From assembly GCA_001247695.2 (NCBI GenBank), contig LGRX02027799.1, positions 1-28,416 of the forward strand: a stretch of DNA of 28,416 nucleotides, in the 5' to 3' direction. The notes beneath the pieces are model-generated. The model was not told the origin of the DNA. It did no database searches and saw nothing but the letters and a program-made list of their open reading frames with translations. Both the position numbers and the translations under genes were made by a program. The stretch's first letter is position 1, and each line of letters opens with the position of its first letter. The stretch is from Cymbomonas tetramitiformis (lineage: Eukaryota > Chlorophyta > Pyramimonadophyceae > Pyramimonadales > Pyramimonadaceae). Of this stretch, positions 1 through 25,476 are shown piece after piece.

Positions 1-314
1 TGTCACATTTCCCAAAACTGTAACGGGTCCTAGCCCTCAAATCTTCATCTGGCCAATGGAAAGTCATTATTCCATGCCAGCTTTAACACTGTTGTCGCTT
101 AACTTATTCTGACTGACACGTCAATGGCAAAGGAGTCATCGCCGTCGTCACCGTATCATTTCTTGGTGACCTGATACTGCGAATATCTTCCCTAGCAGGT
201 TTGTCTCTCTCACGAGGTCATCTTGGCGAAGCCTGTCATACTGTCACTCCTGTCACGCGTGTCACCAGCTGGACAAACCCGGCTCGATACCACGAGAAGC
301 CGGCGTTTGTTACA
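1..314 (-). repeat. Repeat A2 of element E (partial)
   Basis: On the minus strand it begins TGTAACAAACGC at 314 and runs off the window edge, covering about 314 of the 526 bases seen in copy B. It is near-identical to 5612-5926, the A1 repeat of the same element, and similar to 8941-9466 and 16242-16767. Confidence 0.85.
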
Positions 315-316
315 GC

Positions 317-548
317 TGTCGCAAACGTGTGCATATGGTGGTACAAATATCCTCGGGATCGGACAGTCTCAACACTCGCGGATGATCGTAAGTTTGTCAT
401 TAACATTGTCATTAACATTCACTGGTGCCGGTAACTGAACAAGCAATTCTCAACGCAGCACGAGACCATAAGGCTACAAAATCTTTGAAATTCTGATATC
501 CTAAGATCAAACGCTAAGCTCTTCCATGCAAGCCCAGATTTCCAACAT
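317..548 (-). repeat. Repeat B1 of element E
   Basis: It matches the 220-bp B repeats at 16020-16239 and 16767-16986. It is 232 bp long because a GTCATTAACATT motif is tandemly doubled near 397-420. It ends on the minus strand in GCGACA, followed by two bases (GC) and then the TGTAAC start of A2. That junction forms a near-palindrome at 303-328. Confidence 0.8.
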
Positions 549-584
549 CCCCCATCTGTAGCTGCTGCACGCAGTAGCACAGAC

Positions 585-2576
585 TCAAATATGGGCTTGT
601 TCAGCATACTGTGTCGTATCACCATCTGCCATGAACTTGCCCAAGCTGAAAGTGAACATACCAATGCCTTCACCTTCTCCACCCTGTAACATCCTCGCTC
701 TGACCAGCGGATTCTTGAATACCAAGACCCACATACACCTGCGGCCAATAGGTCCATGTTCCAGATGCCCAATCACATGCAAGCGTCCCGTCTGACTCAA
801 TCGTCTGAAGTACGCAGCCCTGCTCTCGGTCATGTCTGTCAAGTAATAAGATGGAACGTGGACACATGCCACCACACGACTGGCCATCACTGCCAATGGA
901 AATGCAATGTCCAGCGCTGCAAACCACGGTGAAGTCACCACCGCGTCACAAACACCATATTTCTCCTTCCATAAGCGATAATTACCTGGTTGAAGTGCGT
1001 CACGCGCCTCAGACCAACCCAACTGAGAATTCCAGTCATTATTCATGAACCTCAACTGCGGCCACTGTTCCATCATCACCTCACTGATGACCCCAGTACC
1101 TGCCCATGGGTCCCAGACGCCATCGATGGACTTCCAATCCACCTCTGTCGCCAATCGCCTCACCTCGGAGGGCACCGTGATGATCAGCTCAAGCCCCCAC
1201 TGCAGCGCGCTAGCTTCTCGCACCTGAGCCTTGGTCATATGTCTCAATTCCCCTCGTCTTTCGACTTCTTCTTCAGCCAAGGCAGGCACACGAGGTGCAT
1301 CCCTCAGCTGCCTTGCCATTGCTTTCTGTTCCCGGTATTTCTTGCTTAGCACCGTGCGATGCCCTTCATTCCAACGTCCTGGCATGAAGACCTGCACAGC
1401 CTTGGACAGCTTATCCTGCCTGCCCCAATCAATCTGATCTGGCATGCCCAGGAACATGTCCTCCCCTTCCAATAGCATCTCCCTTGATGAAATCGCATGC
1501 CATGGCTGAGATTTGTCCCCCTTCACCACGCGGCGAGGACCCACGTCTGCTGGCAGCAGGCGCATCTCCGAGGACAGCTTCTCGCTAAGCTGCTGCTCCT
1601 TTATGCCCAGTCTATCCTCCAGGACTCCAGAGCTCTCATCTTCTTGGGTCTGCACCTCGGCGCTGGCAGCTTGAATTCCCGTGCCTGAGCACCTGAGACA
1701 TAGCCACTCGCCTTCTGGTACTCCATCCAATGCTGGGTTAAGACACCACAAGTGGTAACCCCTGTTGCATGCGTCACATAGCAACATCTCTGCCTCCCCA
1801 TCAGTCCTCCTGCACACTTCGCATGCCAGGTGCTTGCTGGGAACCGCTGCACTGCAATCATACTGGTCCTTCACCTGTAGGTGACATGGCGCGATGCTCT
1901 GCACAGTGCTTTTCTCTCTTAACTTGGTGGCGTCCTCAAGCACCACCACGCCATCTCGCTGTATTTTGACCAACTTCAGGATGGCGGACTTGGTCGCGAC
2001 TTCCATGCCGCTGCGAGGCTTCTGTCTAATGTAGACAAAGTCACCCACCTTGAACCGGTGTGGTTTGGGCTCAATCCCACCACCCCTTCTTCCTTCGTAA
2101 TGTAGAGTGTCACGATGTTGTGCCACCTCCAGACTGCAACCAGCGTGCACCATCAGTCGCTTCACCACCTCTGCCCTTAGCAGTAGCTCCTTGACCCGTG
2201 CGTCCTTGTCATCCTCGATCTCGGGACTGAAATCTATGCTGGGCGCTCGCTTCAAGTCCGGTGGCACCACTGCCTCTTGGGCAAATAACAAAGTGAACGG
2301 TGCCACCCCTGTGGACTCTTGGCGCGCTGCATTATAGCTCAGCACGAGTGCCCAGAGCTGCTCGTCCCACTCATAGTCGAGGCCCTTCTCCAAGGCGATC
2401 TTCTTGAAACAGAACTTCATCGTACGCACCACCCGCTCCGTGAGGCCGTTGCCTTCCGGTGAGTCTGGCGACGTGACTCGACGGTCTATCAGGCAGTCTC
2501 TGCATAGCTGCTTGAATTCTGCACTCTGCTGGCGCCCCGAATACCGCCAGGACATGGCTGCGAAATGCCGCTGCAA
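585..2576 (-). CDS. Integrase C-terminal part + PHD finger + SAM-methyltransferase-like domain
   Basis: This 663-codon open frame is the 3' part of a retroelement polyprotein, not an independent gene. It begins inside the integrase core: the catalytic Glu lies in NGLTERVVR near 2425-2455. A GPY/F-like module follows (HRFKVGDFVYIR). A C4HC3 PHD finger spans about 1689-1823 (CEVC...CDAC...H..C...CLRC). The last ~220 residues resemble a class I SAM-dependent DNA methyltransferase. They have a glycine-rich motif DPWAGTG (1092-1112) as SAM-binding motif I and TSPWF (921-935) in the place of the catalytic (D/N/S)PP(Y/F/W) motif. PHD fingers usually read histone tails; the methyltransferase base specificity cannot be told. 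The start shown is only the limit of the open frame, since the upstream integrase half is at 2514-3909 in another frame. The C-terminal half is about 94% identical by eye to the ORF ending at 15983. Confidence 0.8.
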   Translation of the reverse strand: MQRHFAAMSWRYSGRQQSAEFKQLCRDCLIDRRVTSPDSPEGNGLTERVVRTMKFCFKKIALEKGLDYEWDEQLWALVLSYNAARQESTGVAPFTLLFAQEAVVPPDLKRAPSIDFSPEIEDDKDARVKELLLRAEVVKRLMVHAGCSLEVAQHRDTLHYEGRRGGGIEPKPHRFKVGDFVYIRQKPRSGMEVATKSAILKLVKIQRDGVVVLEDATKLREKSTVQSIAPCHLQVKDQYDCSAAVPSKHLACEVCRRTDGEAEMLLCDACNRGYHLWCLNPALDGVPEGEWLCLRCSGTGIQAASAEVQTQEDESSGVLEDRLGIKEQQLSEKLSSEMRLLPADVGPRRVVKGDKSQPWHAISSREMLLEGEDMFLGMPDQIDWGRQDKLSKAVQVFMPGRWNEGHRTVLSKKYREQKAMARQLRDAPRVPALAEEEVERRGELRHMTKAQVREASALQWGLELIITVPSEVRRLATEVDWKSIDGVWDPWAGTGVISEVMMEQWPQLRFMNNDWNSQLGWSEARDALQPGNYRLWKEKYGVCDAVVTSPWFAALDIAFPLAVMASRVVACVHVPSYYLTDMTESRAAYFRRLSQTGRLHVIGHLEHGPIGRRCMWVLVFKNPLVRARMLQGGEGEGIGMFTFSLGKFMADGDTTQYAEQAHI

Positions 2577-3909
2577 TGGTCCTTGCCTCCTTGTCGGGAA
2601 TGGGCACGCAGACTATAAACCTGGTGTAGTGCTCGGTCATGATGAGCACCCTGTTGTTGCCCGCCTTGGTCTCTCTCCTTGAAGGCCACGCTAGGTCCAA
2701 TGACCACCGGTACATAAATGACACGATCTCAAGGGGCGACAGGCACGCCTCTTCCCTTGCGTAATGAGTCTTCACACGCTGGCAGGTCTCACATTGGGTC
2801 ACCACGGCCTCAACATCCTTCCTTAGATCGGCCCACCAATGACGCTGCCACAGAAGATGCTGCGTGCGCCTTATACCCCAATGGCCCGTTCTGGAATGAT
2901 ATTCCTTGACCAGCGCAAGACGGTCAGCGGGCTTGGGTATCCTCACTTCCTTGCCTGACAACGTGATCATGTAGATCTCGTCCGTAGCTTCATCCCACCG
3001 ATGTCGTGCTGCGCGCCTCCTCACGCGACGGACTTCGTCTTCTGGTAACTTCACGCCACCTTTGGACCTCAACCATCTGAGGCACCATGCGTCATCATGA
3101 ACATCCCGATACTTCTCGCGATCGGCCTGCTGCTCGGCCACGCTGGCCATCAAGTCCGCGAGCCTGGTGGTGCACGCTAATCTGGGCAGTCTCATCTCTG
3201 CATCTTTGGCAGGCGGACTCCAAGCAGGCACGTTGACACGCACTGCTGGAGATGCGCCCTCCTTCACGAAGTGGCTCTCGTGCCTCCGGCGATACTGCTC
3301 GATGGTGTGGAGCTGCCACTCGTTCTTCTTCTTCTTCTTGGTCTCCGCCTTCTGTCGCTGAGTCCCAATTCCTTCTGCACCCTTTTGCCCTTGTGAGCAC
3401 ATTATCTGCAGCCTCTCCTCCCAGTCACGGTGACTCATGGTCTTCGCCACCTGCTGGGTATATGCGTTTGAATTCTCAACCCATTCCGCCAGCAAAGCTT
3501 GCCTCTGCTGAGGATCCGACCTCGCGTGGTCCGCCCAGTTGTTGTCTACAGCTATAGGCTGTCCTGGGGAATTCTCCGCCTCCAAGGACTCCTCGCTGTG
3601 AGGAAGCCCCTTCCTGCTTGCTTCTGCGACCGCCATCAACAGTTCCATAGCCCTGCGATCCATGGCCAGGCCCAGAATGCTCGCCAGTTCTGTGTCGTTC
3701 AGGCCATCGGCCATGCGTAGTTCGCTTGCGCTGTAGCCCATGGCTAGCGCCTTCTCGTCGAGGTTCACCTCTCTGGACTCCTCCTCGATGTCTTTATCAT
3801 TCTGGTTGCGCACCACAGTGCCCATCCTTGCTTTCCTGAATGCTCTTGACCCTTGCGTCGCCATGATGGTGGGAAGAGCCCTCAATGGTTCTCCCACCAC
3901 GTTCACCAC
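2514..3909 (-). CDS. Retroelement integrase N-terminal part (broken)
   Basis: The frame opens at 3909 with ~190 residues of linker of unknown function, including a lysine-rich stretch. An H2C2 integrase zinc-binding motif follows (H...H...CETCQR, about 2760-2910), then the start of the DDE core with the first Asp in SLDLAWP (2688-2703). At GAPAEC (near 2530) the frame is lost. In related integrases a TDxGxEF-type motif with the second catalytic Asp follows here. In this copy the sequence jumps straight to AEFKQL in the frame of the ORF at 585-2576. A short out-of-frame deletion has therefore removed the second catalytic residue. Protease, reverse transcriptase and RNase H are not found upstream. 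Residues after about 2514 in this frame are a shadow. Confidence 0.75.
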
Positions 3910-3910
3910 G

Positions 3911-4073
3911 TAATGAACGGTCTCTGGCCAAAGCGCGACTCACAATTAGACACTTTGGCTGCGGGAACCGTTCATTAGCTAATGAACGGTCTCTGTCCAA
4001 AGCGCGACTCACAATTAGACACTTTGGCTGCGGGAACCGTTCATTAGCTAATGAACGGTCTCTGGCCAAAGCG
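3911..4073. repeat. 69-bp palindromic tandem repeat, 2.4 copies
   Basis: Units start at 3912, 3981 and 4050, giving an exact 69-bp period. The first two units are bounded by inverted ends TAATGAACGGT / ACCGTTCATTA, with inner GGCCAAAG / CTTTGGCT arms. The third breaks off after the left arm. It resembles a head-to-tail array of a small inverted-repeat (MITE-like) unit. It abuts the first in-frame codon of the integrase ORF and marks the edge of the foreign DNA in element E. Confidence 0.75.
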
Positions 4074-4246: not shown

Positions 4247-4438
4247 CTAGGTTGCGCAGATTTAAGGCGTGGTTTGGAGAGTGCTGACGAGCATGCGACG
4301 GCCGTCCCGCCTGCAGACGTGCAGTGTTGGGGGTGTCTCCCAAGCGTCTTAAATTGGCATGACCTACCAAAACCCTTATGCTTTTTTTGGATAATGTGTT
4401 AATAATTTTTGAGTGACGGTGTCTTTTTTTTGTAACAG

Positions 4439-5081
4439 GTGTGCTTTAAGTTCTACTATATGGCTTACGGCATCAGCTACGGGTATCTTCAAGACTGTCG
4501 AACACGCGTGCTCGAGGGCCGACACACGTTTGTTCATGGATTGACGTACGAGGAGGACAACCGCAAGGTTTCCCTGAAACGCGAGTCGGTCGTCGCATGG
4601 CTCGAGAAATACGCGGACGAATACGGACAACCCCAACCTCACAAACCCGAGAAGCACCTTTCAGATGGATTGACCATCGAAGAGCTGTGGGACGAGTACC
4701 TTCAGAGCTTGGGTGAGAATGAGGAGAGCAAAAAACTCTCTCTCAGTTACTGGTACAAAATATTTGAAGAAGATTGCAGCAAGTGGCTAAAGATTCCATC
4801 GGTGAACCGATTTTCTCACTGCGATGTTTGCGCGTCCTTCAAGTTATTGAAGGAAGGCTTAACCAAATCTCAAAAAGGTGAATATTCATGAATAGCTTTG
4901 TGATGTGTTTATATGTTTATGTAATTTGTTCACTGACCCGATTTTGTGTATCATGCACAGGGCAATACAACGGGCCTCTCAACAAACATCTGGCAATCGC
5001 ACGAGCGGAGCGCCAGAAGTTCTACAAACATGGTCGTAAAGCGAATATGACCAAGAGCATTGCCATGAACAAAACTTGGCA
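4439..5081 (+). pseudogene. Partial multi-exon transposase-like gene fragment
   Basis: Two exons are visible. Exon 4439-4877 follows a T-rich acceptor ending AACAG. A GT...AG intron spans 4878-4960, and an exon opens at 4961 and runs to about 5081 in the matching frame. The protein includes CFKFYYMAYGIS, then SYWYKIFEED, then FSHCDVCASFK and ERQKFYKHGRKA. From memory, this pattern (an early Cys/YGIS block, a CxxC block, a charged R-E-R-Q-K block) resembles the region upstream of the DUF7869 domain in transposase-like proteins of algae, oomycetes and animals. That assignment is inference. The second exon is cut at about 5081, where the leader repeats of element E begin. No first exon is visible. 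Confidence 0.5.
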
Positions 5082-5401
5082 AGCAGTTAGGCCAGTGCAC
5101 CATGGGTGCCCCTGGATTCACTGAAGGACAAGGTGCTGAGCATATCACTGAGTGGAGGAAGGCTGCACATGACTAGTGAATTCAAGGTTGATCCGTTGTC
5201 GCCGTCGCTGGTAGCTCTTTCAGTGAAAATACCACCAAGTTCAGGGAAGAAGAAGGGTCCGCCAGTGCACCGTGGGTGCCCCTGGAGTCGCCTGACTTCC
5301 GAATCCGCTCTTGTAAACTGCTGTTGACTTCTCGCCAAAGGGCCTCTACTTCTGGATTAGCACTGAAATAAAAAGCCGCTCCGCGCAGGACATTATTGTT
5401 T
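5082..5401 (-). repeat. Leader of element E with two hairpin units
   Basis: On the minus strand this matches the start of the leader of copy B (9467-9795). Two inverted-repeat units lie at 5262-5285 and 5092-5115, about 170 bp apart, each with outer CCAG/CTGG and inner GCACC/GGTGC arms. The match to copy B stops abruptly at about 5082. Confidence 0.75.
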
Positions 5402-5926
5402 TGAAAAAGTATGAAAACAGCAGTAAAATATATTCATCAAAAATTGTACAATAACCACAAAACACGAATTATTGTCTCCAAAAACTGTGAGCAGAACTGT
5501 CTTAGCAATCTAGCACTGGCACGCGAACAGCCACCTAGCACTTGCGAAGGCAAAACAATAATGAGTCCACTAGTCTGGCCTTCGGTCAGAGCTTACTTAT
5601 CTCTCAATGCTCTGTCACATTTCCCAAAACTGTAACGGGTTCTAGCCCTCAAATCTTCATCTGGCCAATGGAAAGTCATTATTCCATGCCAGCTTTAACA
5701 CTGTTACCGCTTAACTTATTCTGACTGACACGTCAGTGGCAAAGGAGTCATCGCCGTCGTCACCGTATCATTTCTTGGTAACCTGATACTGCGAATATCT
5801 TCCCTAGCAGGTCTGTCTCTCTCAGGAGGTCATCTTGGCGAAGCCTGTCATACTGTCACTCCTGTCACGCGTGTCACCAGCTGGACAAACCCGGCTCGAT
5901 ACCACGAGAAGCCGGCGTTTGTTACA
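5402..5926 (-). repeat. Repeat A1 of element E
   Basis: This is the 5'-terminal repeat of copy E. It starts TGTAACAAACGC at 5926 and ends TTTTTCA at 5402 (525 bp). It is closely similar to 8941-9466 and 16242-16767. As in copy B, it is followed directly by AAACAATAATGTCC and the leader, not by a copy of repeat B. Confidence 0.85.
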
Positions 5927-8240
5927 GCTGTTATCCGACCCTCTGCCACGAGTCCAGCAGATAGTTTACGGAAAGCCGCTCCCAGGCTCTTGATCACTGA
6001 AGCCATGAGCTGCACCTTCCTCTGCATCTCGTCCGCCGCAGGCGCCATGCATGGGCACCTGTGCGTCGGCCTCGTACTCCTCGGGTGTCTTCACTGGGAA
6101 GCCCCTCATGCGTTGGGTGCTACCCAGTGCTACAGCCGGTGCTGCCATGTACTCGGAGTCAGCACCCTTGCTTGGTGTCTCAGGGAGTTCCCCCAAGCCC
6201 AAGGTGTCGAGTGCGTTCGAGAGCACTTCTTCACCCATCTCCTCGGCCAGTGCTGAGAGTAGATTGATCGGAGAGCCAGACGGCGCTCCTGCTTCTCCGT
6301 GGCCACGGTGGTGCACTTCGTGTATGTTGACGATGTGCGTCTCCCTCTCCGCGACGCGCGCTGCGACTGGCTCCTCGTCGGAACCCTCATCTTCAGACAG
6401 TACCTGCGACCTCACACTACCAGCACGACTAGCAGTTTTTCGGGCAGCCACCATGCCCTGGTACTCAGCCTTCAACGCCTCAGGGTTGCCAGTGGTACCC
6501 TTCTGGTTGTCCGCTGGTGGTTTCTTGACTGGTGCTCGATACTTGTCCTTCTCGTCGTTGGACAGTTGCTGCCAGTCCGTTACCAGAATGCCCCAGTCGG
6601 AGCTCTTGAAGCGGTTCTTCAAGTTGTACATGCGCAGGGCGGCATTCTCCGCGTCCCACCACTTGCTGGAACCAAGCCTGTCCTCGTGGTACCCAGCAGG
6701 CATCTTGACGTGCTTGTAGCCACTCCTGCACTGCTCAGGCTCGGACTCGTGCCAGCCCCCTCCGAAACAGCGTACGCACTTGGGCTTGTCGTTTGTGCGG
6801 GTGCCCTCTGCTGGCGGCGGCGTCTTGTTGTAGGAGGGCTTCTTGGTCCTTTCGGCCACGTTCACCTCCTTCTTCATCTTCTTAGAGGGCGGTGTCTCCG
6901 CCTTCTTGCTGTCCTCCAGGTCGCCTGACTGTCCTTCCCTAGCTGCCTCAATCTTCTTGATCGAGTTCTTTATTGCCTTGAGGTCGAGGCCATGTTGACG
7001 AGCTTCCCAGGTAGAGTACTGGCAGCCACATCGCCTGGTGATCTCCTGCAGGAAGATGAGAATCCAGGACTCCGCATCGTTCTTGAGCTTGTCCTGTACC
7101 TCGACGATGGACTCTAGGTCCTTCCAGGTCACCCGATTGGGTGGCGGGAACTGTGCCCTCAGCTGCTCCTTCACCCGTGTCTGGAAGATCTTGATGCGCA
7201 GGTTCTCTACGCAGTCCTCGATGAAGGTACGCAGCTCTGCGTCGCTCAGCAGTTTACCAGTGTTGAGCTGCATCTCCCTGCGTTGACACATCTTCATGTA
7301 TGTTAGCCCATCCTGCCCCAACTCTTGAGGCTTCTGGGTCAACAGATCAACTTTCTCTTGCGTTCCCTTCATCATGAACTTCTTGTCAAGGGCAGCGATA
7401 AAACCCCTGAGTGCATAGAAGTACTGCATGTCACGGGTACCGTCATGTCCCGTCAAGCCCTTCAGCGAAGTCCCATCAGTCAGATAGTCGTCGGAAACTT
7501 CCCCTTCGGCGTCATGATTCGTCGCTGGCCTCGCTATCACCCACGTGGCACCAGCATTCCTCTCATTGAAAGGGGGCCTAGCACATGGGATAGAACCCTC
7601 AAGTGGGCCATGTTCACTAGTGTCTTTGAGGACTCTGTCCATGTTGGAGGCCACTACACCCCCTTTCTCATAATTCTCACGCCACCAGCTGAGGGTCTGC
7701 GAATTCTCGCCAGTCAGACACGCGGGGATAATGTCCCACAATGTTTCAAAGTCAGGAGGTGTCTCTCTCAGGGCCTTGATCTGCGCTTCTGTGAGCGTGC
7801 CAGCCACGGACCTGAGCTTCTTCCTGATGTTGGCGTTGTGCTGACGCACAAAGTTCTCGCACATGTTGGCGAATTCCCTCAGGAACTTGGGACGGTCCTC
7901 CTCCTTGGTCCCCGTGTAAATGGGCAGAGTACCAAGGGCGAGGCGCGTGGAGTCAGTGTACTCCATTTCTTCCTCAAATATCACTACCGGCTCTTGTGCT
8001 TGTACCAGAGGTTGCACTGGTGCCTGAGGTTGTACTGGAGCTTGTACCTGAGGTTGTACTGGGGCTTGGCCCTCAGGCTGGCCTCTGACAGCCTCTTCCT
8101 CTTCTTCCAGCTCTGTAAAGTGCTGGCTCACCCGTACTGCTCTCTGGTTACGCCTCTCTGCCCTTTGCTGTTTCTGAAGGTCAGTGCTGGACTCCGTTGC
8201 TACTTTCCCGGTGGTGAGGAGATGCCAATGTGAAGGCTCT
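5927..8240 (-). CDS. Retroelement Gag-like protein, interrupted (divergent relative of B gag)
   Basis: The long frame spans 8131-5966 (721 codons) and is open back to about 8240 without an ATG, so the true start is unknown; GTG at 8131 is nominal. The protein has a Q/P-repeat N-terminus, a conserved core (YTGTKEEDRPKFLREF, then LKGLTGHDGT and DLESIVEVQDKLKNDAESW), a Lys-rich basic stretch and a variant zinc knuckle (CVRCFGGGWHESEPEQC). The core aligns residue by residue with the Gag part of the ORF at 13444-15983, but identity is clearly lower. Near 6045 the frame probably shifts: the minus-strand frame at 6048-5935 reads a plausible continuation (ADEMQRKVQL) that runs into the element E insertion at 5926. 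The role is particle assembly and RNA packaging, by analogy with retrotransposon Gag. Confidence 0.7.
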
Positions 8241-8410
8241 TTTCACTCCACACTTCCGAGCTTACCAGTACGGATAGATCCGTCCCTGGCTTCACCTTTC
8301 AGTGCTTGAGATACTCTCAACCCGGCCACTTGCTTCAGTGGCATCTTCAGGCTGATTTATCTTGGGGGTGCTCTCAACACTGGTACCTGTGCAGTACCCT
8401 GAGAGTTTCC
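8241..8410. other. Gap between two Gag genes
   Basis: This is the boundary between the C-element Gag stop (8411) and the open frame of the neighbouring Gag. It contains stops in the relevant frames. I see no terminal repeats or target duplication, so the way the two elements were joined is unknown. Confidence 0.4.
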
Positions 8411-8936
8411 CTAAGGAGCTGGAGCTGAAGCTGGAACTGGAGTTGCAACTGCTGCAGTAATGCTGTGCTGATTCTTCAGTTCCTTAACCAAGGTGTTGAT
8501 CGTATTGATGAGTTTGCCGGACCCATCCTTAGCACCCTGATTCTGCTGCTGCTGCCTCCGGTTCTGGAAAGGATTCTGAGCTGGTGGCTTTCCCTTGATA
8601 TCTTTTCCATCTGGGGTCTTGGTGGAATAACAATCCTTCTCGATGTGACCAACACGACCACAACGATTGCAAGACTGAGGATTCTGTGATTTTCCTTTTC
8701 CTTTGCCCTTGCCTTTCCCACCTTTTCCCTTGCTCCGATTTTGATTGGAGTTCTGGCTGCCACTTTGGTTCTGATTCCGATTTCTGTTGGATCTGTAATA
8801 TGGCTTCTGGCCACGTCCTTTGTCCTTGTCCTTCTTGACTGGACCTCCTGATGACTGCTCCCTCTGACCCCGATAGTGAAGAGTTTCTGACTGCTTTGAA
8901 TGAATGACATAATTCAAATCAAGCAGTATCTGTGTG
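8411..8936 (-). CDS. Ty3/gypsy-type Gag, C-terminal half (zinc knuckle)
   Basis: This is the 3' half of the gag gene whose 5' half is at 16987-17789. It has a very basic G/K/N/Q-rich region, a canonical CCHC zinc knuckle (CNRCGRVGHIEKDC, C-x2-C-x4-H-x4-C), a Q-rich stretch and an A/P-rich end before the stop at 8411. The knuckle binds the element RNA in related retrotransposons. The frame is open back to the target site at 8936, and joining it to 16987 across the insertion keeps frame. The combined length would be about 442 residues. No C-element pol is recognisable to the left. Confidence 0.8.
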
Positions 8937-8940
8937 GTTT
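8937..8940. repeat. 4-bp target-site duplication GTTT (left)
   Basis: It is paired with GTTT at 16987-16990. Removing 8941-16986 plus one copy restores the gag reading frame of element C across the site. Confidence 0.85.
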
Positions 8941-9466
8941 TGTAACAAACGCCGGCTTCTCATGGTACCGCGCCGGGTTTGTCCAGCTGATGACACGCGT
9001 GACAGAGATGACAGTGTGACAGGTTTTGCTAAGATGACCACCTGAGAGATGCAGACCTGCCAGAGAAGATATGGTCAGTATCAAGTGATCAGGGAATGAT
9101 ACGATGAAGATGGCAGTGACTCCTTTGCCACTGACGTGTCAGTCAGAATGTGGTAAACGGTAACATTGTTAGAGCTTGCATGGAATAATGACTTTCCATT
9201 GGCCAGATGAAGATTTGAGGGCTAGAACCCGTTACAGTTTTTGGGAAATGTGACAGAGCATTGAGAGATAAGTAAGCTCTGACCGAAGGCCAGACTAGTG
9301 GACTCATTATTGTTTTGCCTTCGCAAGTACTAGGTGGCTGTTCGCGTGCCAGTGCTAGCGTGCTAAGACAGTTCTGCTCACAGCTTTTGTACACAATAAT
9401 TCGTATTTTGTGGTTATTATACCAATTTTGATGAATACATTTTACTACTGTTTTCATACTTTTTCA
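8941..9466 (+). repeat. Repeat A1 of element B
   Basis: This is the 526-bp 5'-terminal repeat, the same length as A2 at 16242-16767 and nearly identical to it. It is followed by AAACAATAATG, whereas A2 is followed by repeat B2. No tRNA-like primer-binding site is evident just downstream. An antisense open frame of 104 codons runs through both copies but is broken in element E. Confidence 0.9.
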
Positions 9467-10950
9467 AAACAATAATGTCCTGCGCGGAGCGGCTTTTTAT
9501 TTCAGTGTTAATCCAGAAGTAAAGACCCTTTGGCGAGAAGTCGGCAGTAGTTTGCAAGAGCGGATTCGGAAGTCAGGCGACTCCAGGGGCACCCACGGTG
9601 CACTGGCGGACCCTTCTTCTTCCCTGAACTTAGTGATACCTCAACTGAAAGGGGTCACCAGCGACGGCGGCAACGGATCAGCTCTGAATTCACTGGTTAA
9701 TGAGCGGCCTTCTTCTATCCGGTGATATGCTCAGCACCTTGTTCTGCAGTGAATCCAGGGGCACCCCTGGTGCACTGGCCTAACTGCTAACAGGTGTTCT
9801 TCAGTTTAGAGCTAATCAGCACGGCATGAGCTTGGGCGACGGCGGCGACAGAGTGGATCAGCAGTTAAGGTGTGCCTTGATGAGCTACCTCTCAGTGGTC
9901 TCTCCAGTTGACCACCTTGTCTGAAGTGAATCCAGGGACACCCCTGGTGTACTGGCCTAACTGAAAGGCAAGTGTGCGTGACCTGGGAGCTAATTAGCGG
10001 CGGCATCTGCCTGGACAGAGCAGACCGGCAGTGAGTTATTACCTTATGAGTGGACTCTCACCTTACGGTTTCTCTGGCAGTTCTACCTTGTCTGACGGTT
10101 AATCCAGGGGCACCCCTGGTGTACTGGCCTAAACCTGAAGCAGGAGCAAGCTTGCCAGAGGGATAGCAGCGGCATCAACCCTGAAGGTGACAAGTGGGTG
10201 GTCTTTATATACGTTATTCACTGGTTTGTCAAAGGTGACTGGTGGATTCAGACCTAATTGAGTACTGGCCCAGCCTGGAGTGCTGTTCACCACTGGGTAT
10301 TCTCTGGTTCTTTATCATGATGTGTATGAGAATTCTTTTATCTCTTTTACAGTACATGGCAGCCGGTGAGGCCCTTATATCACCAGCTACCTTCTGAATT
10401 AGCAGTGGTGTTGCGAATCCAGGGGTGCTCAGCACACTGGCTTAGCTCCCAGCTCTGTGTGGCGACTTCTCTCTTGCTTACTGGACTGGGGGTGGACTTC
10501 CATGCCAACTTCCGTGCCCTTAATGAGCAGTGGTGCGGTGAATCCAGGGGTGCTCAGCACACTGGCTTAGCTCACACCACTGCGTATTCGTGCTATTTCT
10601 GGTGCCTGGTTGGAAGAAGTGCTGTCTTTATAGGCTCTGTGCTCTTGATGGACGTTGGCTTAGCTAATCCAGGGGTGCTCAGCACACTGGCCCAGCTCTA
10701 AGCCCCTCTTGCACGAGTATTTTGCATCTGCTGCTGATCCAGAGCTGTTAGACATATTGCTGGACTTTTGGGCTCGCGCTGGCTGCACGCGTTTCGTCCT
10801 TCTGCTGGTTCAGAACGGTGTTAATCCAGGGGCACTCAGTGCACTGGCCTAAACCAGACTGAATTAGGCCTGCATCCTGTTGGTAAATAAGCTCTGCGCC
10901 AAAGAAGGACACGCTTCCTTAGTCCCACTTGCTGAGCACTGACGTAGCGC
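9467..10950 (+). repeat. Hairpin-array leader of element B
   Basis: This is a non-coding leader of degenerate tandem units, each centred on an inverted repeat: 9583-9606, 9755-9778, 9932-9955, 10104-10127, 10419-10440, 10544-10565, 10669-10690 and 10826-10847. Spacings are 172, 177, 172, 315 (a decayed unit lies near 10248-10272), 125, 125 and 157 bp. Each core has AATCCAGGG (or CTCCAGGG), two 5-nt complementary arms, and A-CTGGC. Arms vary in a paired way: GCACC/GGTGC, ACACC/GGTGT, GTGCT/AGCAC and GCACT/AGTGC. Sequence between cores is much less conserved. It could act as RNA structure (packaging, translation) or as DNA binding sites. Confidence 0.85.
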
Positions 10951-11275
10951 TTGATCACGGAGAGCGAGGCGGAGCTGAGCGCCGCCGCTGCCCAGTCCAG
11001 ACAGCGTGAGGCACGGCGACTGGCACGGGAGACAAGCAGTCAGCAGCTTGACATTGGCTATATGAGCACAGAAGGGTCAGGTCCAGAATCCAGTCCCCCC
11101 ACACCATCATCATTACCAGCAATAAGGGCAGTAGCAGCATCAAGAGCAGCAGCCGCAGCCAATCAGTTCCTCTTTGCGTTTGACGACGTAGACGAGATGG
11201 ATTATCATGACAGAGACAGTCACACACCTGACAAGATTGATGACAAGCTTAGTTACACTGGTGGCAAGAATGAGG
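10951..11275 (+). CDS. Gag N-terminal segment of element B (before element D)
   Basis: This segment is in frame with the ORF at 13444-15983 once element D is removed. An in-frame TAG at 10945-10947 sets the upstream limit. The first ATG is at 11062 (MSTEGSGPES); earlier initiation would need a non-ATG codon or splicing from the leader. The segment is rich in A, S and acidic residues and ends YTGGKNE at the insertion site. It aligns with YTGTKEED in the related Gag at 5966-8131. That match supports both the frame and the site of the insertion. Confidence 0.7.
11265..11275. repeat. 11-bp target-site duplication of element D (left)
   Basis: CAAGAATGAGG here is repeated at 13433-13443. A 9-11 bp duplication is typical of Mutator-like elements. 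Confidence 0.85.
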
Positions 11276-11599
11276 GAAAAATAATTAATATAGAATAAGT
11301 TTTCTTAATCTTAGAATAACCCGTTTCATCGTTAATTTAGAATAAGTTTTCTTGATGTCATCCGGCTATGACCGGTGGTCCTTTTCACGACTCGTGTTCA
11401 AATAATGTGCACACAGGTCAAACGCTCTCGTTCCCGCTGGTGCCATCATGAGGAAGCCTCCAAAAAGCTTTAAGAAGGTTTGTCTCGCTTGTGATAATGG
11501 TGGGCGCCGTTGTAATAGACACTCACGGCGTGTCCTGCTTGAAAAAAAAGGCCCCTGTACTTCTTCTAGATTCTAAACCCTTTGACTTGCCTTTTACCG

Positions 11600-13045
11600 C
11601 TGCACGCGACCGGCAAGCATCTTTGAAACTTCCGAGTTTCAAAGATGCGTTTTGTATTTTGGGTGCACCCTAATTTTACAAAACGGCCGAGCGCTTCCCG
11701 TTTGTGCGGGATATTCACATTTATTCCATGGAATATTTCATATGGATTAACACACATAAGCACGAAGGCATCGGCCACGCATCTTTGAAACTAACGAGTT
11801 TCAAAGATGCGTTTTTTGTCATTTGGGTGCGCATACCCAAATAACAAATCAGCCGAGCGCTTCCCGTTGGCGTGGGGTATCCAACGCTTGAATGTTGAAT
11901 ATTCATTGTAATATGAGTTAGCAAGCGAGGTTGCAAAGGCATCGGGACAGAATCTACGAAACTGTCCTATGCCTTTGCCTTTGGGTTTGGGTTCGAAGGT
12001 GACACCCAAACCCAAAGATGCCAAACAGCCGAGGGCTTCCCGTGCGTCCTAACGCACGAAACTTGGCACGAATACTACCATGGTACATATATTTAAGTTA
12101 CCAGAAGCTCAAGGCTTCAAGATACTTGTGCGCGAAACGCGCAATTTATTTCTAAGGCAGATGTTTTGGGTTTGGGTTCGAACGTGACACCCAAACCCAA
12201 AGATGCCAAACAGCCGAGGGCTTCCCGTGCGTCCTAGAGCACGAAACTTGGCACGAATACTGCCAAGATACATATATTTAAGTTACCAGAAGCTCATGGC
12301 TTCAAGTTACTTGTGCGCGAAACGCGCAATCTATTTCTAAGGCAGATGCTTTGGGTTTGGGTTCGAACGTGACACCCAAACCCAAAGATGCCAAACAGCC
12401 GAGGGCTTCCCGTGCGTCCTAGAGCACGAAACTTGGCACGAATACTGCCAAGATACATATATTAAAGTTACCAGAAGCTCTAGGCTTCAAGTTACTTGTG
12501 CGCGAAACGCGCAATCTATTTCTAAGGCAGATGCTTTGGGTTTGGGTTCGAACGTGACACCCAAACCCAAAGATGCCAAACAGCCGAGGGCTTCCCGTGC
12601 GTCCTAACGCACGAAACTTGGCCCGAATACTACCATGGTACATATATTTAAGTTACCAGAAGCTCAAGGCTTCAAGTTACTTGTGCGCGAAACGCGCAAT
12701 CTATTTCTAAGGCAGATGTTTTGGGTTTGGGTTCGAACGTGACACCCAAACCCAAAGATGCCAAACAGCCGAGGGCTTCCCGTGCGTCCTAGAGCACGAA
12801 ACTTGGCACGAATACTGCCAAGATACGTATATTTGAGTTACTTGAAGCTCAAGGCTTCAAGTTACTTTTGCGCGAAACGCGCAATCTATTTCTAAGGCAG
12901 ATGCTTTGGGTTTGGGTTCGAACGTGACACCCAAACCCAAAGATGCCAAACAGCCGAGGGCTTCCCGTGCGTCCTAGAGCACGAAACTTGGCACACATAC
13001 TGCCAAGATACATATCTTTCAGTAGCTTGAAGCTCAAGGCTTCAA
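11600..13045. repeat. 185-bp hairpin satellite inside element D
   Basis: The motif CCAAACAGCC recurs at 12021, 12206, 12391, 12576, 12761 and 12946, an exact 185-bp period. Each unit is preceded by an inverted repeat TTTGGGTTTGGGT ... ACCCAAACCCAAA. Two older diverged units lie at about 11600-11850. Their hairpins have other sequences but still pair: one has TTTTGTA/TACAAAA arms around GGGTGCACCC, the other ATTTGGGT/ACCCAAAT. They also carry a second palindrome, CATCTTTGAAAC / GTTTCAAAGATG. Confidence 0.85.
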
Positions 13046-13157
13046 GTTACTTACTTTTTTTCAAGCAGAACACGCCGTGAGTGTCTATTGTGGCAAAGAT
13101 GGCAAATAATAAAAGTCATTATGCGTAAAGAGTCGTTAATCACGGCCGTGACTTTTA

Positions 13158-13234
13158 GATTCACGGCCGTGAATCTTTCCGAATGGAACCAAAAACCGTT
13201 CGATTTTAATCGAACGGTTTTTGGTTCCATTCGG
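13158..13234. repeat. Perfect palindromes in element D
   Basis: Positions 13158-13175 are a perfect 18-bp palindrome centred on CGGCCG. Positions 13179-13205 and 13208-13234 are perfect 27-bp inverted arms separated by only two bases (TT). Such a structure could extrude as a cruciform or be cleaved during replication. Confidence 0.9.
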
Positions 13235-13432
13235 ACATATGGACATCACGGCAAGACAACTCTTCAGTGTAATATTTCGCATGGCATGGGGATAGCTCAA
13301 CAGGTACAGGTACAACGTCATGGATGCATGCACCGGTCATAGCCGGATGACATAAAGAAAACTTATTCTAAATTAACGATAAAATGGGGTATTCTAAACT
13401 TATGAAAAAATATTCTAAATTAAATAGCCTAC

Positions 13433-13443
13433 CAAGAATGAGG
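13433..13443. repeat. 11-bp target-site duplication of element D (right)
   Basis: CAAGAATGAGG, identical to 11265-11275. Joining at either copy keeps the Gag frame (YTGGKNE then DRVLFIRRF). Confidence 0.85.
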
Positions 13444-15983
13444 ACAGGGTGCTTTTCATCAGGCGCTTTGTTGAAATGGTGGCAAAAGTACAGCGGGCTC
13501 ACAAGGCTAAGATACGCAGGCACACGAGGTCAGCGGCCTTTCACTCGCTCAACACACTGGCAAAAAAGGCCTTCATAGAGTCCAAACCAGACTACAGATC
13601 GCTGTGGGACCTCTTGCCTTCATTCTTAGCAGGAGATGATCATGCCACCTCAGTCGCTTATGAGTGGTGGTGCGCTTCATACATGAAGGATGGCCTTATG
13701 GCCTCCCATGCGTGTCACGTCTTGAAGGACCTCACCACGAGGGACTCTTACCAGGGCTCAGTACGCTGCGCACAACCCCCTTTCCATGAGTTGGCGCCAG
13801 GGACAACATGGGCAGTCTGTAAGAAGTTCGAGGATGGTGATGCTGAGGGTGAGCTGTCTGACGAGTGGGAGGAGGAGGAAGCAACTTCTACCAAGGGTCT
13901 CACGGGGCCAGATGGCACGGAGGACTCTCACTATTTTTGGGCCTTGAGGGCGTTCATTGCAGAGCTCGAGGCCAAGTTCCTGCTGAAGGGCACCAAGGAG
14001 AAGGAGGACCTGTTGGTCGCCAAGTCGCAGACCGCCGAGCAGGATGGCCTTGCTTACGTGAAAAGTTGTCGACGCAGGGAAGCGGCGCTCAACGCTGGCA
14101 AGTCAGTGGGGGACTCCATCGTCAGACAGGACGTTGAGGAGTGCATCAAGGGTCTGCGCATCAAGGAGTACCGAGATCGCGTATCGGAGCAGCTGCGAGT
14201 CAGCCACCCTGCACCCAGCAGGGTCACCTGGGAGGACCTTGAGGTCATCGTGGAGGTGCAGGATAAGTTGAAGAACGATGCAGAAGCATGGGCCCTGACG
14301 CTCCAGCAGGAACTCGTACGCAGACTGACTTGCGTGTATTCCTGCTACGAAGCCAGGATGCTGGGGATTGACCTCTCTGAGTTGGTGTCCTCCATGAGGC
14401 GTTCTGGCTCCTCCCACAAGACTGGGGACAAACGTAGGGACACTAAAAAGAAGGAGCCAGCTCAGTCTGGTGGTGATGGTGCGAAGAGGCCTACAAGGGA
14501 GGCGAACAATGCGGAGAGGCAGAAGCCCACTTATGGCAAGGTGCCGCCACCTGACGCCCCGAAGCAGTTCGAATGCGAGTACTGCTTCACGAAGTTGCCC
14601 CATTCGCCAGAGCGCTGCTATACTGGGTGTCGGGAGGCTAAGGTGCCCCACAACTTCCACAAGGATCGCCAGCACTCGAAGTGGCCAGCTGAGGTCAAGA
14701 ATGCTCAGATGCGTGCTTACAACATCGCGCACCGCTTCAACGACCACAAGATGGGGATCACCACGAAGGAGTGGCTCAAGCTGCCGGAGTCCAAGCAGAA
14801 GCCGCAGAAGCCGCAGCCATACCACTTATGGTGTCTTAACCCAGCACTGGATGGAGTACCAGAGGGCGAGTGGCTATGTCCCAGGTGCTCAGGCACGGGG
14901 ATGCAAGCTGAGGTGCAGACCCAGGAAGACGAGAGCTCTGGTGTCATGGAGGACAGACTGGGCATGAAGGAGCAGCAATTGAACGAGAAGCTGTCCTCAG
15001 AAATGCGCCTGCTGCCAGCAGACGTGGGTCCCCGTCGTGTGGTGAAGGGAGACAAATTTCAGCCATGGCATGCCATCTCATCAAGGGAGATGCTATTGGA
15101 AGAGAAGGACGTGTTTTTTGGCGTGCCATATCAGATTGATTGGGGCAGGCAGGATAAGCTCTCGACGGCCGTGCAGATCTTCATGCCAGGGCATTGGAAT
15201 GAGGGGCATCGCACGGTGATGAGCAAGAAATATCGCGAACAGAAGGCAATGGCAAGGCAGTTGAGGGATGTACCTCTTGTGCCTGCTTTGGCTGAAGAAG
15301 AAGTTGAAAAACGAGGAGAAGTGAGACACATGACCAAAGCCCAGGTGCGAGAAGCTAGCGCACTGCAGTGGGGGCTTGAGCTGGTCATCACAGTGCCCTC
15401 CGAGGTGAGGCGTTTGGCGACAGAGGTGGACTGGAAGTCCATCGATGGCGTCTGGGACCCATGGGCAGGTACTGGGGTCATCAGCGAGGTGATGATGGAA
15501 CAGTGGCCGCAGTTGAGGTTCATGAATAATGTCTGGAATTCTCAGTTGGGTTGGTCTGAGGCGCGTGACGCACTCCAACCAGGTAATTATCGCTTATGGA
15601 AGGAGAAATATGGTGTTTGCGACGCGGTGGTGACTTCACCTTGGTTTGCAGCGCTGGACATTGCATTTCCATTGGCAGTGATGGCCAGTCGTGTGGTGGC
15701 ATGTGTCCACGTTCCATCTTATTACTTGACAGACATGACCGAGAGCAGGGCTGCGTACTTCAGACGATTGAGTCAGACGGGACGCTTGCATGTGATTGGA
15801 CATCTGGAACATGGACCTATTGGCCGCAGGTGTATGTGGGTCTTAATATTCAAGAATCCGCTGGTCAGAGCCAGGATGTTACAGGGTGGAGAAGGTGAAG
15901 GCATTGGTATGTTCACTTTCAGTTTGGGCAAGTTCATGGCAGATGGTGATACGACCCAGTATGCTGAACAAGCCCATATTTGA
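13444..15983 (+). CDS. Gag-methyltransferase fusion protein (element B, after element D)
   Basis: The frame is uninterrupted for about 845 codons and continues 10951-11275 across element D; the full protein would be about 954 residues. The N-terminal part is Gag: core motifs LKDLTTRD, TKGLTGPDGT and VEVQDKLKNDAEAW, a basic region, and a variant knuckle CEYCFTKLPHSPERC. At about 14819 the Gag sequence (KPQKPQP) passes straight into the second half of the PHD finger (YHLWCLNP...CPRC), so the first zinc ligands of the PHD are lost. The linker and methyltransferase-like domain then follow: DPWAGTG at 15456-15476 and TSPWF at 15633-15647. Compared with the 3' part in element E, the methyltransferase-like half differs at only a few residues. 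Protease, RT, RNase H and integrase have been deleted in frame. The product could package as Gag while carrying the methyltransferase domain; activity is unproven. Confidence 0.8.
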
Positions 15984-16019
15984 GTCTGTGCTACTGCACG
16001 CAGCAGCTACAGATGGGGG

Positions 16020-16239
16020 ATGTTGAAAATCTGGGCTTGCATGAAAGAGCTTAGCGTTCGATCTCAGAATATCAGAATTTCAAAAATTTTGTAGCTTTAC
16101 GATCTTGTGCTGCGTTGAGAATTGCTTGAACAGTTACCGGCACCAGTGAATGTTAATGACGAACTTATGATCATCCGCGAGGGTTAAGGTTGCTCGATTC
16201 CGAGGATATTCGTACCATCATATACACGCGTTTGCGACA
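16020..16239 (+). repeat. Repeat B1 of element B
   Basis: This 220-bp repeat begins ATGTTG, 37 bp after the methyltransferase stop codon, and ends GCGACA. It is the same length as B2 (16767-16986) and nearly identical to it (about three differences). Confidence 0.9.
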
Positions 16240-16253
16240 GCTGTAACAAACGC
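16228..16253. repeat. 26-bp near-palindrome at the B1/A2 junction
   Basis: The B1 end (GCGTTTGCGACA), two bases GC, and the A2 start (TGTAACAAACGC) make a palindrome with two mismatched pairs, centred on ACAGCTGT. The same structure is at 303-328 in element E. It is what one would get by joining the right and left ends of the element head to tail with a 2-bp spacer. Confidence 0.85.
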
Positions 16254-16767
16254 CGGCTTCTCATGGTACCGCGCCGGGTTTGTCCAGCTGATGACACGCG
16301 TGACAGAGATGACAGTGTGACAGGTTTTGCCAAGATGACCACCTGAGAGATGCAGACCTGCCAGAGAAGATATGGTCAGTATCAAGTGACCAGGGAATGA
16401 TACGATGAAGATGGCAGTGACTCCTTTGCCACTGACGTGTCAGTCAGAATGTGGTAAACGGTAACATTGTTAGAGCTGGCATGGAATAATGACTTTCCAT
16501 TGGCCAGATGAAGATTTGAGGGCTAGAACCCGTTACAGTTTTTGGGAAATGTGACAGAGCATTGAGAGATAAGTAAGCTCTGACCGAAGGCCAGACTAGT
16601 GGACTCATTATTGTTTTGCCTTCGCAAGTACTAGGTGGCTGTTCGCGTGCCAGTGCTAGCGTGCTAAGACAGTTCTGCTCACAGTTTTTGTACACAATAA
16701 TTCGTATTTTGTGGTTATTATACCAATTTTGATGAATACATTTTACTACTGTTTTCATACTTTTTCA
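16242..16767 (+). repeat. Repeat A2 of element B
   Basis: This 526-bp copy of A1 lies between B1 and B2 and begins TGTAACAAACGC. Together A2 and B2 would look like a 745-bp LTR, but the 5' end of the element carries only the A part. Confidence 0.9.
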
Positions 16768-16986
16768 TGTTGGAAATCTGGGCTTGCATGAAAGAGCTTA
16801 GCGTTCGATCTCAGAATATCAGAATTTCAAAAAATTTGTAGCTTTACGATCTTGTGCTGTGTTGAGAATTGCTTGAACAGTTACCGGCACCAGTGAATGT
16901 TAATGACGAACTTATGATCATCCGCGAGGGTTAAGGTTGCTCGATTCCGAGGATATTCGTACCATCATATACACGCGTTTGCGACA
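16767..16986 (+). repeat. Repeat B2 of element B
   Basis: This is the 3'-terminal 220-bp repeat, ending GCGTTTGCGACA at the target duplication GTTT (16987-16990). It is preceded directly by A2. Confidence 0.9.
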
Positions 16987-17789
16987 GTTTCTTGCCACGA
17001 CAGATTATTCCTTTCCTGTTCTGTCAGGAATCTGAGTTGGAACTGTCTGCGGAGATCTGGATCCATACTGGTGACGAATCTGTCCTTTATTAGCACATCG
17101 TTCAAATCAACTGCTGCTAAAGCAGCCAGTGACGTGAACGTGTGCAAATAGTCTGAGAAGGTTTGGTTCCCTTGATGCAGCGCCATAAGGTGTTTCTTGG
17201 CAACTGATCTCTTATGAGGGTTACCAAATTGGCTGAGGAATATCCGTCTGACCATTTCATAGGTGGCATTTGGCTGTTGTGCCAAGACCTGAAAATAGTG
17301 TCTGTCGTTGTTCTGAATAAGAGTCAGAAACACTGTAATCAAATCCTTGTCCTTGACTCCTGGATAGGTGAACTGGAAATATCGGTCCACCGAGTCCAAC
17401 CAGACTTCTGCGTCCTGTCCTGATTTGAATTCCCTAGGTGGTGTCATTTTCACCTTTGGGACCAAACTAGGTGGAACTGGTGCTGGGACAGAATCTGTAT
17501 CTGGATCTGTAAAAACCATCGGAGGATTATCTTCTGTGTACTCGGTCTCTGGTTCCTGAGGTTCATTGGCTGGATCCCTAAATCGGCTCATGTCTGGCTT
17601 AATACGACCGATGTCGTCGAAGTAGCCTATCTGGTCGTATCTGGTTTGTGTGTTGTCATAACCAGCGATCCATTTCGGGACTTTAAACCGGCTGAATGCA
17701 TCATATGAACCAAGAATGTCGAAAAACCATGTCGATGGATCTGGGTTGATAACTGGAATCTCTGGCTCTTCCTCTTCGAGTGCAACCAT
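16987..17789 (-). CDS. Ty3/gypsy-type Gag, N-terminal half
   Basis: It starts at ATG 17789 (MVALEEEEPEIPV). The first ~110 residues are acidic and proline-rich. A typical Retrotrans_gag domain follows (DKDLITVFLTLIQ, then NPHKRSVAKKHLMALHQG and TFSDYLHTFTSLA, then DPDLRRQFQLRF). This family forms the retrotransposon capsid. The last codons before the insertion read LSWQE, and the frame continues at 8936 in the zinc-knuckle half. Reading into element B adds a few foreign residues and a stop at 16965. The gene was open until B inserted, so C was relatively young then. Confidence 0.8.
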
Positions 17790-23661: not shown

Positions 23662-23678
23662 TACAGTAACAATGCCAT

Positions 23679-25452: not shown

Positions 25453-25476
25453 ATTGCTTTTCCTGCATATACCAAA

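What the first reader, a model, noticed from the sequence alone, without database searches (positions are those of the whole stretch)
8941..16986. Retroelement with split direct repeats (A1 ... B1-A2-B2) but integrase-style ends and target duplication
Two repeat units are arranged as A1 (8941-9466), B1 (16020-16239), A2 (16242-16767) and B2 (16767-16986), with equal lengths of 526/526 and 220/220. Known split-direct-repeat retrotransposons (PAT, Ngaro and relatives) use a tyrosine recombinase and make no target duplication. This family instead has TG...CA ends, a 4-bp duplication (GTTT) and, in copy E, an H2C2/DDE-type integrase. Copy E repeats the same order on the other strand (A1 5926-5402; B1 548-317; A2 from 314) with the same A1/leader junction. 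LTR-style replication would rebuild two identical LTRs, so an A-only 5' end kept in two copies argues for another replication route. This may be an undescribed type of element.
Basis: partly seen in the sequence, partly recalled or inferred. Interest (0 to 1): 0.93.

Follow-up and report, generated by a model that had tools for sequence, protein, structure and literature searches.

The report
Retrotransposon integrated out of register
In a green alga, a retrovirus-like jumping element joins the chromosome by ends that lie inside the repeats that its predicted copying signals mark out, so it likely inserts from a closed DNA circle, a route that was dropped for retroviruses.

Summary
Confirmed: copy D is TSD-A1-internal-B1-GC-A2-B2-TSD (8937-16990), with TG...CA ends and a 4-bp GTTT duplication; joining the flanks over one GTTT reopens the interrupted gag frame.

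New here: copying signals and integration ends disagree. An 11-nt self-priming PBS starts right after A and a purine-rich tract ends right before B, so the predicted cDNA repeat is B-A. Yet the chromosome-joined ends are A-start and B-end; they form an inverted repeat (20/28 positions in D, 19/28 in E) and meet inside the B-A repeat as CA-GC-TG. D is a circular permutation of BA-internal-BA, as if a 2-LTR circle had been opened there.

It recurs: E starts at the same base, and two Cymbomonas gene models from other sites (P0001, P0010) show the B-end abutting foreign ORFs; P0001 keeps A-then-B order. All 5 visible outer junctions use these ends.

Relatives carry an H2C2/DDE integrase; Pfam scans showed no tyrosine recombinase. 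Reading: a Gypsy-like element probably integrating from a circle. The circle is inferred, only one complete copy was read as DNA, and the genome-wide count never ran (genome search did not complete).

The parts
8937..8940 (.). target-site duplication GTTT, left of copy D
8941..9466 (+). A1 of copy D, TGTAAC...CTTTTTCA; its start is the chromosome-joined left end
9305..9315 (+). CATTATTGTTT in A1, exact complement of the PBS-like 11-mer; predicted RNA 5' end
   Evidence: start site inferred
9467..9477 (+). PBS-like 11-mer AAACAATAATG directly after A1 (Tf1-like self-priming predicted)
9478..16011 (+). rest of the internal region of D: long leader, 185-bp tandem repeats (11979-13052), gag-like/PHD/methyltransferase ORF
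13428..15983 (+). 851-aa stop-to-stop ORF of D: gag-like part joined to the end of a PHD finger and a methyltransferase-like domain; no integrase or RT domain found
   Evidence: (PHD E = 0.0023, below Pfam cut-off)
16012..16020 (+). purine-rich tract GATGGGGGA directly before B1 (predicted PPT)
   Evidence: function inferred
16021..16239 (+). B1 of copy D, TGTTGA...GCGACA
16212..16269 (.). near-palindrome centred on the GC spacer 16240-16241 between B1 and A2; predicted inner integrase attachment site
   Evidence: 21 of 29 pairs in D (E: 20 of 29; A2|B2 junction 9 of 29)
16242..16767 (+). A2 of copy D
16768..16986 (+). B2 of copy D; its end GCGACA is the chromosome-joined right end; A2|B2 border reads TTTTTCA|TGTTGG
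16987..16990 (.). target-site duplication GTTT, right of copy D
16991..17789 (-). gag of the interrupted element X, upstream half (Retrotrans_gag)
   Evidence: (PF03732, E = 1.7e-8)
8411..8936 (-). gag of element X, downstream half with a zinc-knuckle-like motif
   Evidence: (zf-CCHC E = 0.0047, below Pfam cut-off)
5402..5926 (-). A1 of copy E, same start TGTAAC and same leader junction; left flank CAGC
5391..5401 (-). PBS-like 11-mer of copy E
2371..3939 (-). copy E ORF with Integrase_H2C2 and the first part of the integrase core
585..2612 (-). copy E ORF: rest of the integrase core, PHD finger, methyltransferase-like domain
548..556 (-). purine-rich tract GATGGGGGA of copy E
317..547 (-). 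B1 of copy E (231)
1..314 (-). A2 of copy E, cut by the window edge
5966..8242 (-). gag-like ORF Y that flanks copy E's A1; related to D's gag (67% over 314 bp)

Best explanation
This is an LTR retrotransposon, Ty3/Gypsy-like by its relatives' proteins, whose chromosome-joined ends (A-start, B-end) lie out of register with its likely cDNA ends (B-start, A-end), and it probably integrates from a two-LTR circle that integrase would open at a near-palindrome inside the LTR. Shown by sequence: D is A1-internal-B1-GC-A2-B2 between 4-bp duplications; A-start and B-end form an inverted repeat and meet as CA-GC-TG inside the B-A repeat; D equals BA-internal-BA closed at A|B and cut at B|A. Inferred cycle: RNA starts in A1 at CATTATTG, folds back on the PBS and self-primes as in Tf1; strand transfer to A2 and plus-strand start at GATGGGGGA give linear BA-internal-BA; its ends are joined to TTTTTCA|TGTTGG; integrase cuts the B|A palindrome of the circle (or of a head-to-tail dimer), loses the two spacer bases and inserts A-internal-BA-B with a 4-bp duplication. 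That provirus again yields BA-internal-BA, so the cycle closes. D shows no integrase and E's integrase frame is broken, so both would depend on relatives.
For: 4-bp TSD and restored target frame for D. PBS-like 11-mer exactly at the A|leader border of D and E; only 3 of 3934 D-leader 11-mers and 2 of 11400 control 11-mers have an exact complement in A1. Purine-rich tract exactly before B in both. A-start/B-end inverted repeat 20/28 (D) and 19/28 (E); random TG/CA pairs of the window reach 20 in 88 of 200000 draws; B-start/A-end match at only 10 and 8 of 30. P0001: A-start then B-end then a foreign gag; 10 of 12 gag relatives align from exactly that border. P0010: B-end (10 of 12 residues) running straight into an integrase ORF. 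5 of 5 visible outer junctions at A-start or B-end. Within-copy homogenisation: 32 columns separate D from E, 0 separate A1s from A2s. D/D/E motifs in 5 of 5 fetched relatives. Precedent: foamy virus integrase cuts the palindrome of 2-LTR circles (PMC1180852, passages).
Against: No circle has been observed. Only D is a complete copy read as DNA; P0001 and P0010 are annotated proteins and assume colinear DNA. A symmetric 2-LTR circle should also give A-B-A-internal-B insertions; 0 of 3 informative copies (D, E, P0001) show it, which has chance 1 in 8 if both forms are equally common. Of the 4 variable positions in the end repeat, one keeps its match by a double change, one gains and two lose it. 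Other centres in the window score higher as palindromes (at least 15 at 23 or more of 29, against 21 here; 14 lie in the ACATG microsatellite, one is a hairpin at 13206). For MLV the internal LTR-LTR site was reported as poor or unused (reference titles), and linear DNA is the accepted precursor (PMC11054761, passages).
Confidence: 0.6

Rival explanations
1. PAT-like copying: no LTR-type cDNA is made; the RNA of A1-internal-B1-A2-B2 is copied, the missing ends are filled in from the internal B1-A2 stretch, and the resulting circle is inserted by a DDE integrase instead of a tyrosine recombinase.
For: Same A1-B1-A2-B2 layout as PAT/Ngaro elements (PMC4157794, passages); it gives the same circle; only one insertion orientation was seen (3 of 3).
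Against: It does not explain why a PBS-like 11-mer and a purine-rich tract sit exactly at the A|leader and internal|B borders, nor why B1 and B2 are homogenised over their whole length (216 of 219 identical; D against E 194 of 219).
Confidence: 0.17
2. Ordinary Gypsy element with LTR = A (526 bp), B being the last part of the internal region; D's B2 is a one-off rearrangement.
For: E as far as visible (A1-internal-B1-A2) fits it; A has TG...CA ends.
Against: D's duplication and the restored X frame put B2 inside the insertion; P0001 also has A then B-end at its border; P0010 has a B-end border; A-start pairs with B-end (20/28), not with A-end (8 of 30 in D, 9 of 30 in E); the stretch before A2 (GCGTTTGCGACAGC) is not purine-rich.
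Confidence: 0.12
3. DNA transposition: the whole A1...B2 unit moves as a DNA transposon by its inverted ends.
For: Inverted repeat of about 28 bp at the ends and a 4-bp duplication.
Against: A1 and A2 would then diverge by position, but 0 columns group A1s against A2s while 32 group by copy; predicted PBS and PPT; relatives carry RNase H and integrase.
Confidence: 0.04
4. Segmental duplication, recombination between nested copies, or misassembly produced the arrangement.
For: The window is densely nested and the genome is repeat-rich (68.3% interspersed repeats; PMC10675990, passages).
Against: Flanks of D, E, P0001 and P0010 are unrelated, borders coincide to the base, and D has a clean duplication with a restored frame.
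Confidence: 0.05

Closest known systems
Ty3/Gypsy LTR retrotransposons of the self-priming Tf1 kind (PMC7175516, passages)
   Same: 11-base self-complementary PBS next to the LTR; in relatives RNase H before an H2C2/DDE integrase
   Different: In Tf1 the LTR ends are also the integrated ends (recalled); here the integrated ends lie inside the predicted LTR and the provirus is permuted
PAT/Toc3/Kangaroo and Ngaro elements with split direct repeats (PMC4157794, passages)
   Same: A1...B1-A2-B2 order; a methyltransferase domain occurs in PAT elements and a methyltransferase-like domain here
   Different: Those use a tyrosine recombinase and make no duplication; here a 4-bp duplication and a DDE integrase in relatives; the methyltransferase-like domain was not shown to be homologous to theirs
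Spleen necrosis virus with an internal LTR-LTR junction (Panganiban & Temin 1984, as told in PMC11054761, passages)
   Same: An attachment junction inside the genome used from a 2-LTR circle, giving permuted proviruses
   Different: Built in the laboratory and later not accepted as the normal route; here a natural element with the site inside its LTR
Foamy virus integrase cleavage of 2-LTR circles (PMC1180852, passages)
   Same: Integrase cuts a palindrome made of two joined attachment ends
   Different: There the palindrome is the LTR-LTR junction; here it lies inside the LTR, 219 bp from its start in D, and the LTR-LTR junction is not palindromic (9 of 29)

Membership tests
Ty3/Gypsy LTR retrotransposon | RT-RNase H upstream of an H2C2/DDE integrase | tested here: met
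   By relatives, not in D or E: P0026 has RNase H (1-43), H2C2 (510-562), rve (581-676); D/D/E motifs in 5 of 5 fetched relatives (residues assigned by recalled motif). E has H2C2; RT not found in D or E.
Ty3/Gypsy LTR retrotransposon | short target-site duplication | tested here: met
   4 bp GTTT for D with restored target frame; not visible for E, P0001, P0010.
Ty3/Gypsy LTR retrotransposon | provirus bounded by two complete identical LTRs whose ends are the integrated ends | tested here: not met
   D is A1...B1-A2-B2; E starts with A only; P0001 ends A-then-B.
Tf1-type self-priming | PBS complementary to the RNA 5' end | tested here: inconclusive
   Exact 11-nt complement at the A border in D and E; RNA 5' end not mapped.
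PAT/Ngaro (DIRS order) | split direct repeats A1-B1-A2-B2 | tested here: met
   D; P0001 in part.
PAT/Ngaro (DIRS order) | tyrosine recombinase, no target duplication | tested here: not met
   4-bp duplication; no tyrosine-recombinase family among Pfam matches of 8 window ORFs and 7 relatives at E <= 0.01.
Circle-integrating retroelement | circular DNA with two B|A sites as integration precursor | not testable with these tools
   Needs eccDNA sequencing.

The most novel reading that the evidence does not exclude
A natural lineage of Gypsy-like retroelements carries its integrase attachment palindrome inside the LTR and integrates from 2-LTR circles, making permuted, PAT-like proviruses. Split direct repeats thus arose with a DDE integrase, and circle integration, claimed in 1984 and then dropped, is a working life cycle in nature.
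Probability: 0.5. Interest if true: 0.94.

Novelty: new variant of a known kind. Interest (0 to 1): 0.85.

Why it matters
In known LTR elements the ends made by reverse transcription are the ends used by integrase (standard model, recalled). Here they appear to be different places, 219 bp apart in D, which requires a joining step between copying and integration. That would revive two-LTR circles as integration precursors, show how a split-direct-repeat layout can arise without a tyrosine recombinase, and break a rule on which LTR-finding software rests, so such elements may be called with wrong ends or missed. It is directly testable on a long-read Cymbomonas assembly.

Tried and rejected
LTR = A alone: disfavoured because A-start pairs with B-end and the stretch before A2 is not purine-rich (sequence). 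LTR = A-B: rejected because leader follows A directly in both copies and B1 precedes A2. DNA transposition: disfavoured by the 32-to-0 grouping of A columns. Tyrosine recombinase: none among Pfam matches of the proteins scanned. Penelope-like elements (circularly permuted pLTRs): PMC3846280 was read in passages; the family's integrase and RNase H speak against it.

Search for other DNA copies led nowhere: the 15-mer TGTAACAAACGCCGG hit 27 viral stretches and the 18-mer GCGACAGCTGTAACAAAC hit 2, with no extended similarity to A, B, leader or D (longest BLAST piece 25 bp). Protein and alignment scans of viral contigs and genome contigs confirmed no relative. A protein search with translated LTR pieces found none at E <= 10; its length limit excluded P0001 (735 aa). 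Of the 107 proteins compared with the window's LTR and leader stretches, only P0001 and P0010 gave LTR-derived stretches at E below 0.05; the other 11 listed scored E 0.44-0.99 and were taken as chance. None of the 12 proteins P0108-P0119 matched an LTR stretch.

Literature (listings unless said): split direct repeats + integrase + retrotransposon, 8 papers; permuted + LTR retrotransposon + integrase + provirus, 0; circularly permuted + LTR retrotransposon + target site duplication, 3; internal attachment site / two LTR circle / tandem LTR, 8; 2-LTR circle + retrotransposon, 15 of 78 listed and 12 of 28 listed; Gypsy + PHD finger + integrase + Volvox, 0. No title or abstract start there describes such an element. 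The two Cymbomonas genome papers PMC10675990 and PMC5741210 were read in passages only and those passages mention none. Absence from these searches is not proof.
Full report
WHAT IS THERE. The host is Cymbomonas tetramitiformis or a near relative: the E polyprotein matches CYMTET proteins at up to 91%. Copy D (8941-16986, +) is A1-internal-B1-GC-A2-B2 between GTTT duplications. It sits in the gag of another element, X, on the minus strand (Retrotrans_gag in 17789-16965, E = 1.7e-8; a weak zinc knuckle in 8959-8411, E = 0.0047). Joining the flanks over one GTTT gives one open frame across the site. Copy E (5926 to beyond base 1, minus strand) starts with the same TGTAAC and has the same leader junction and the same B1-GC-A2 order. 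D and E share 848 bp at the 5' end and 1758 bp at the 3' end at 90-91%; most of their middles differ.

TWO SETS OF ENDS. Copying signals: the first 11 leader bases after A, AAACAATAATG, have an exact complement inside A (9305-9315) in D and likewise in E; 3 of 3934 leader 11-mers of D and 2 of 11400 control 11-mers (17000-28400) have any such complement in A1. This matches the 11-base self-primer of Tf1 (PMC7175516, passages). GATGGGGGA ends at the base before B in both copies. So the predicted cDNA repeat is B-A (TGTTG...TTTTTCA, 747 bp in D). Integration ends: the chromosome-joined ends of D are TGTAAC... and ...GCGACA. As inverted repeats they match at 20 of 28 positions (E: 19 of 28). Random TG/CA pairs from the window reach 20 or more in 88 of 200000 draws, a number that includes the window's own repeats. 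B-start and A-end match at only 10 (D) and 8 (E) of 30. Centred on the GC spacer, 21 of 29 pairs match in D and 20 in E, against 9 at A2|B2; but at least 15 other centres of the window score 23 or more, 14 of them in the ACATG microsatellite and one a hairpin at 13206. Between D and E four of the 28 end positions vary: one changes on both sides and keeps the match, one gains it, two lose it: weak evidence only.

PERMUTATION. BA-internal-BA closed into a circle and cut at B|A gives exactly A-internal-BA-B. The A2|B2 border of D is TTTTTCA|TGTTGG, the two predicted cDNA ends joined with no extra base. At the B|A cut point two bases, GC, lie between CA and TG.

RECURRENCE. Of 107 proteins, two carry LTR-derived peptides. 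P0001 (CYMTET_43656, 735 aa) reads as a spliced model: integrase-PHD-methyltransferase, then VTNAGFSWYRAGFVQL (A-start), then YSYHHVHAFAT (B-end), then IPRVVRPLGHYEELC..., a foreign gag. Of 12 other proteins found with this tail, 10 align from exactly that isoleucine; the three whose upstream residues were printed continue upstream as ...LLEVTKRL. P0010 (CYMTET_12752) begins MFVPSYARVCDS (B-end, 10 of 12 residues as in D) and goes straight into LTERVVRT of an integrase ORF. E's codons there (GGC CTC) fit a direct join after GCGACA, but a hidden intron, with B followed by A, cannot be excluded, and then P0010 would say nothing about the border. With D (two ends) and E (one end) this makes 5 of 5 visible outer junctions at A-start or B-end and 0 at B-start or A-end. 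The flanks differ at all four sites.

HOMOGENISATION. In the roughly 314 A columns held by all four repeats, 32 separate copy D from copy E and 0 separate A1s from A2s. A1 and A2 are therefore re-made from one template, as reverse transcription does and DNA transposition does not.

ENZYMES. All five relatives fetched (P0002, P0003, P0012, P0015, P0026) carry the motifs LDLAWP or LDLTWP, LVDGGKEF and SPEGNG, taken from recalled motifs as D, D and E of the integrase. Pfam: P0012 and P0026 match H2C2 above cut-off; rve is above cut-off in P0026 and just below in P0012. P0001, itself a permuted copy, encodes the second D and the E plus PHD. E's integrase is split between two ORFs in different frames, and D showed no integrase domain, so both would need help in trans. 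[quoted passage not shown] whole model mean 67.9, pTM 0.46; best Foldseek match 2f8l, E = 4e-5; Ty3 integrase 7q5b also matches, E = 3.4e-4).

HOW IT LIKELY WORKS. Shown by sequence: provirus order, target duplication, inverted ends, position of the PBS-like and purine-rich stretches, recurrence of the ends. Inferred: self-priming, BA-internal-BA cDNA, closure to a 2-LTR circle (a head-to-tail dimer would serve as well), integrase opening of the B|A palindrome, insertion. The RNA of an A-internal-BA-B provirus would contain R in A1 and again in A2, so it could regenerate BA-internal-BA; B2 is not needed for copying.

KNOWN CONTEXT. Circle integration was claimed for spleen necrosis virus by putting an LTR-LTR junction inside the genome (Panganiban & Temin 1984, as told in PMC11054761, passages), then displaced by linear DNA as the precursor (same source; Ellis & Bernstein 1989 and Lobel 1989 seen as reference titles). 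Foamy virus integrase does cut such palindromes (PMC1180852, passages). Split direct repeats are described for tyrosine-recombinase elements that make no duplication (PMC4157794, passages).

LIMITS. Only one complete copy was read as DNA. Two of four copies are known from annotated proteins. The reciprocal circle product A-B-A-internal-B was not seen (0 of 3 informative copies: D, E, P0001). The genome-wide test did not run (15 unanswered calls, the last). My odds: repeats and duplication of D 0.97, recurrent shifted ends about 0.85, circle route about 0.6.

Noticed in passing
4436-4891 (+): A 151-aa open frame on the strand opposite to copy E, in its middle that does not match D; possibly from another inserted element.
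   Followed up: no
585-1640 (-) and 14907-15983 (+): A methyltransferase-like domain follows the PHD finger of the integrase ORF; distant green-algal and metagenomic relatives (for example P0046 Volvox africanus) align over about 90% of the query.
   Followed up: partly
relatives P0018, P0041, P0051: Related Cymbomonas proteins carry a C-5 cytosine DNA methylase match (PF00145), apparently between RNase H and integrase in this family.
   Followed up: partly
11979-13052: 5.8 copies of a 185-bp tandem repeat in the long leader of copy D.
   Followed up: no
13177-13235: Near-perfect hairpin centred at 13206 (28 of 29 pairs) just after the tandem array in copy D.
   Followed up: no
19724-24114 (+): A non-LTR-type reverse transcriptase ORF (RVT_1, E = 8.1e-23) with a partial direct repeat of its coding part (21280-21762 and 23678-24114, 86%).
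   Followed up: no
25045-25339: (ACATG)n microsatellite of about 59 units.
   Followed up: no
3911-4073: 69-bp tandem repeat, 2.4 copies, at the start of copy E's integrase ORF.
   Followed up: no
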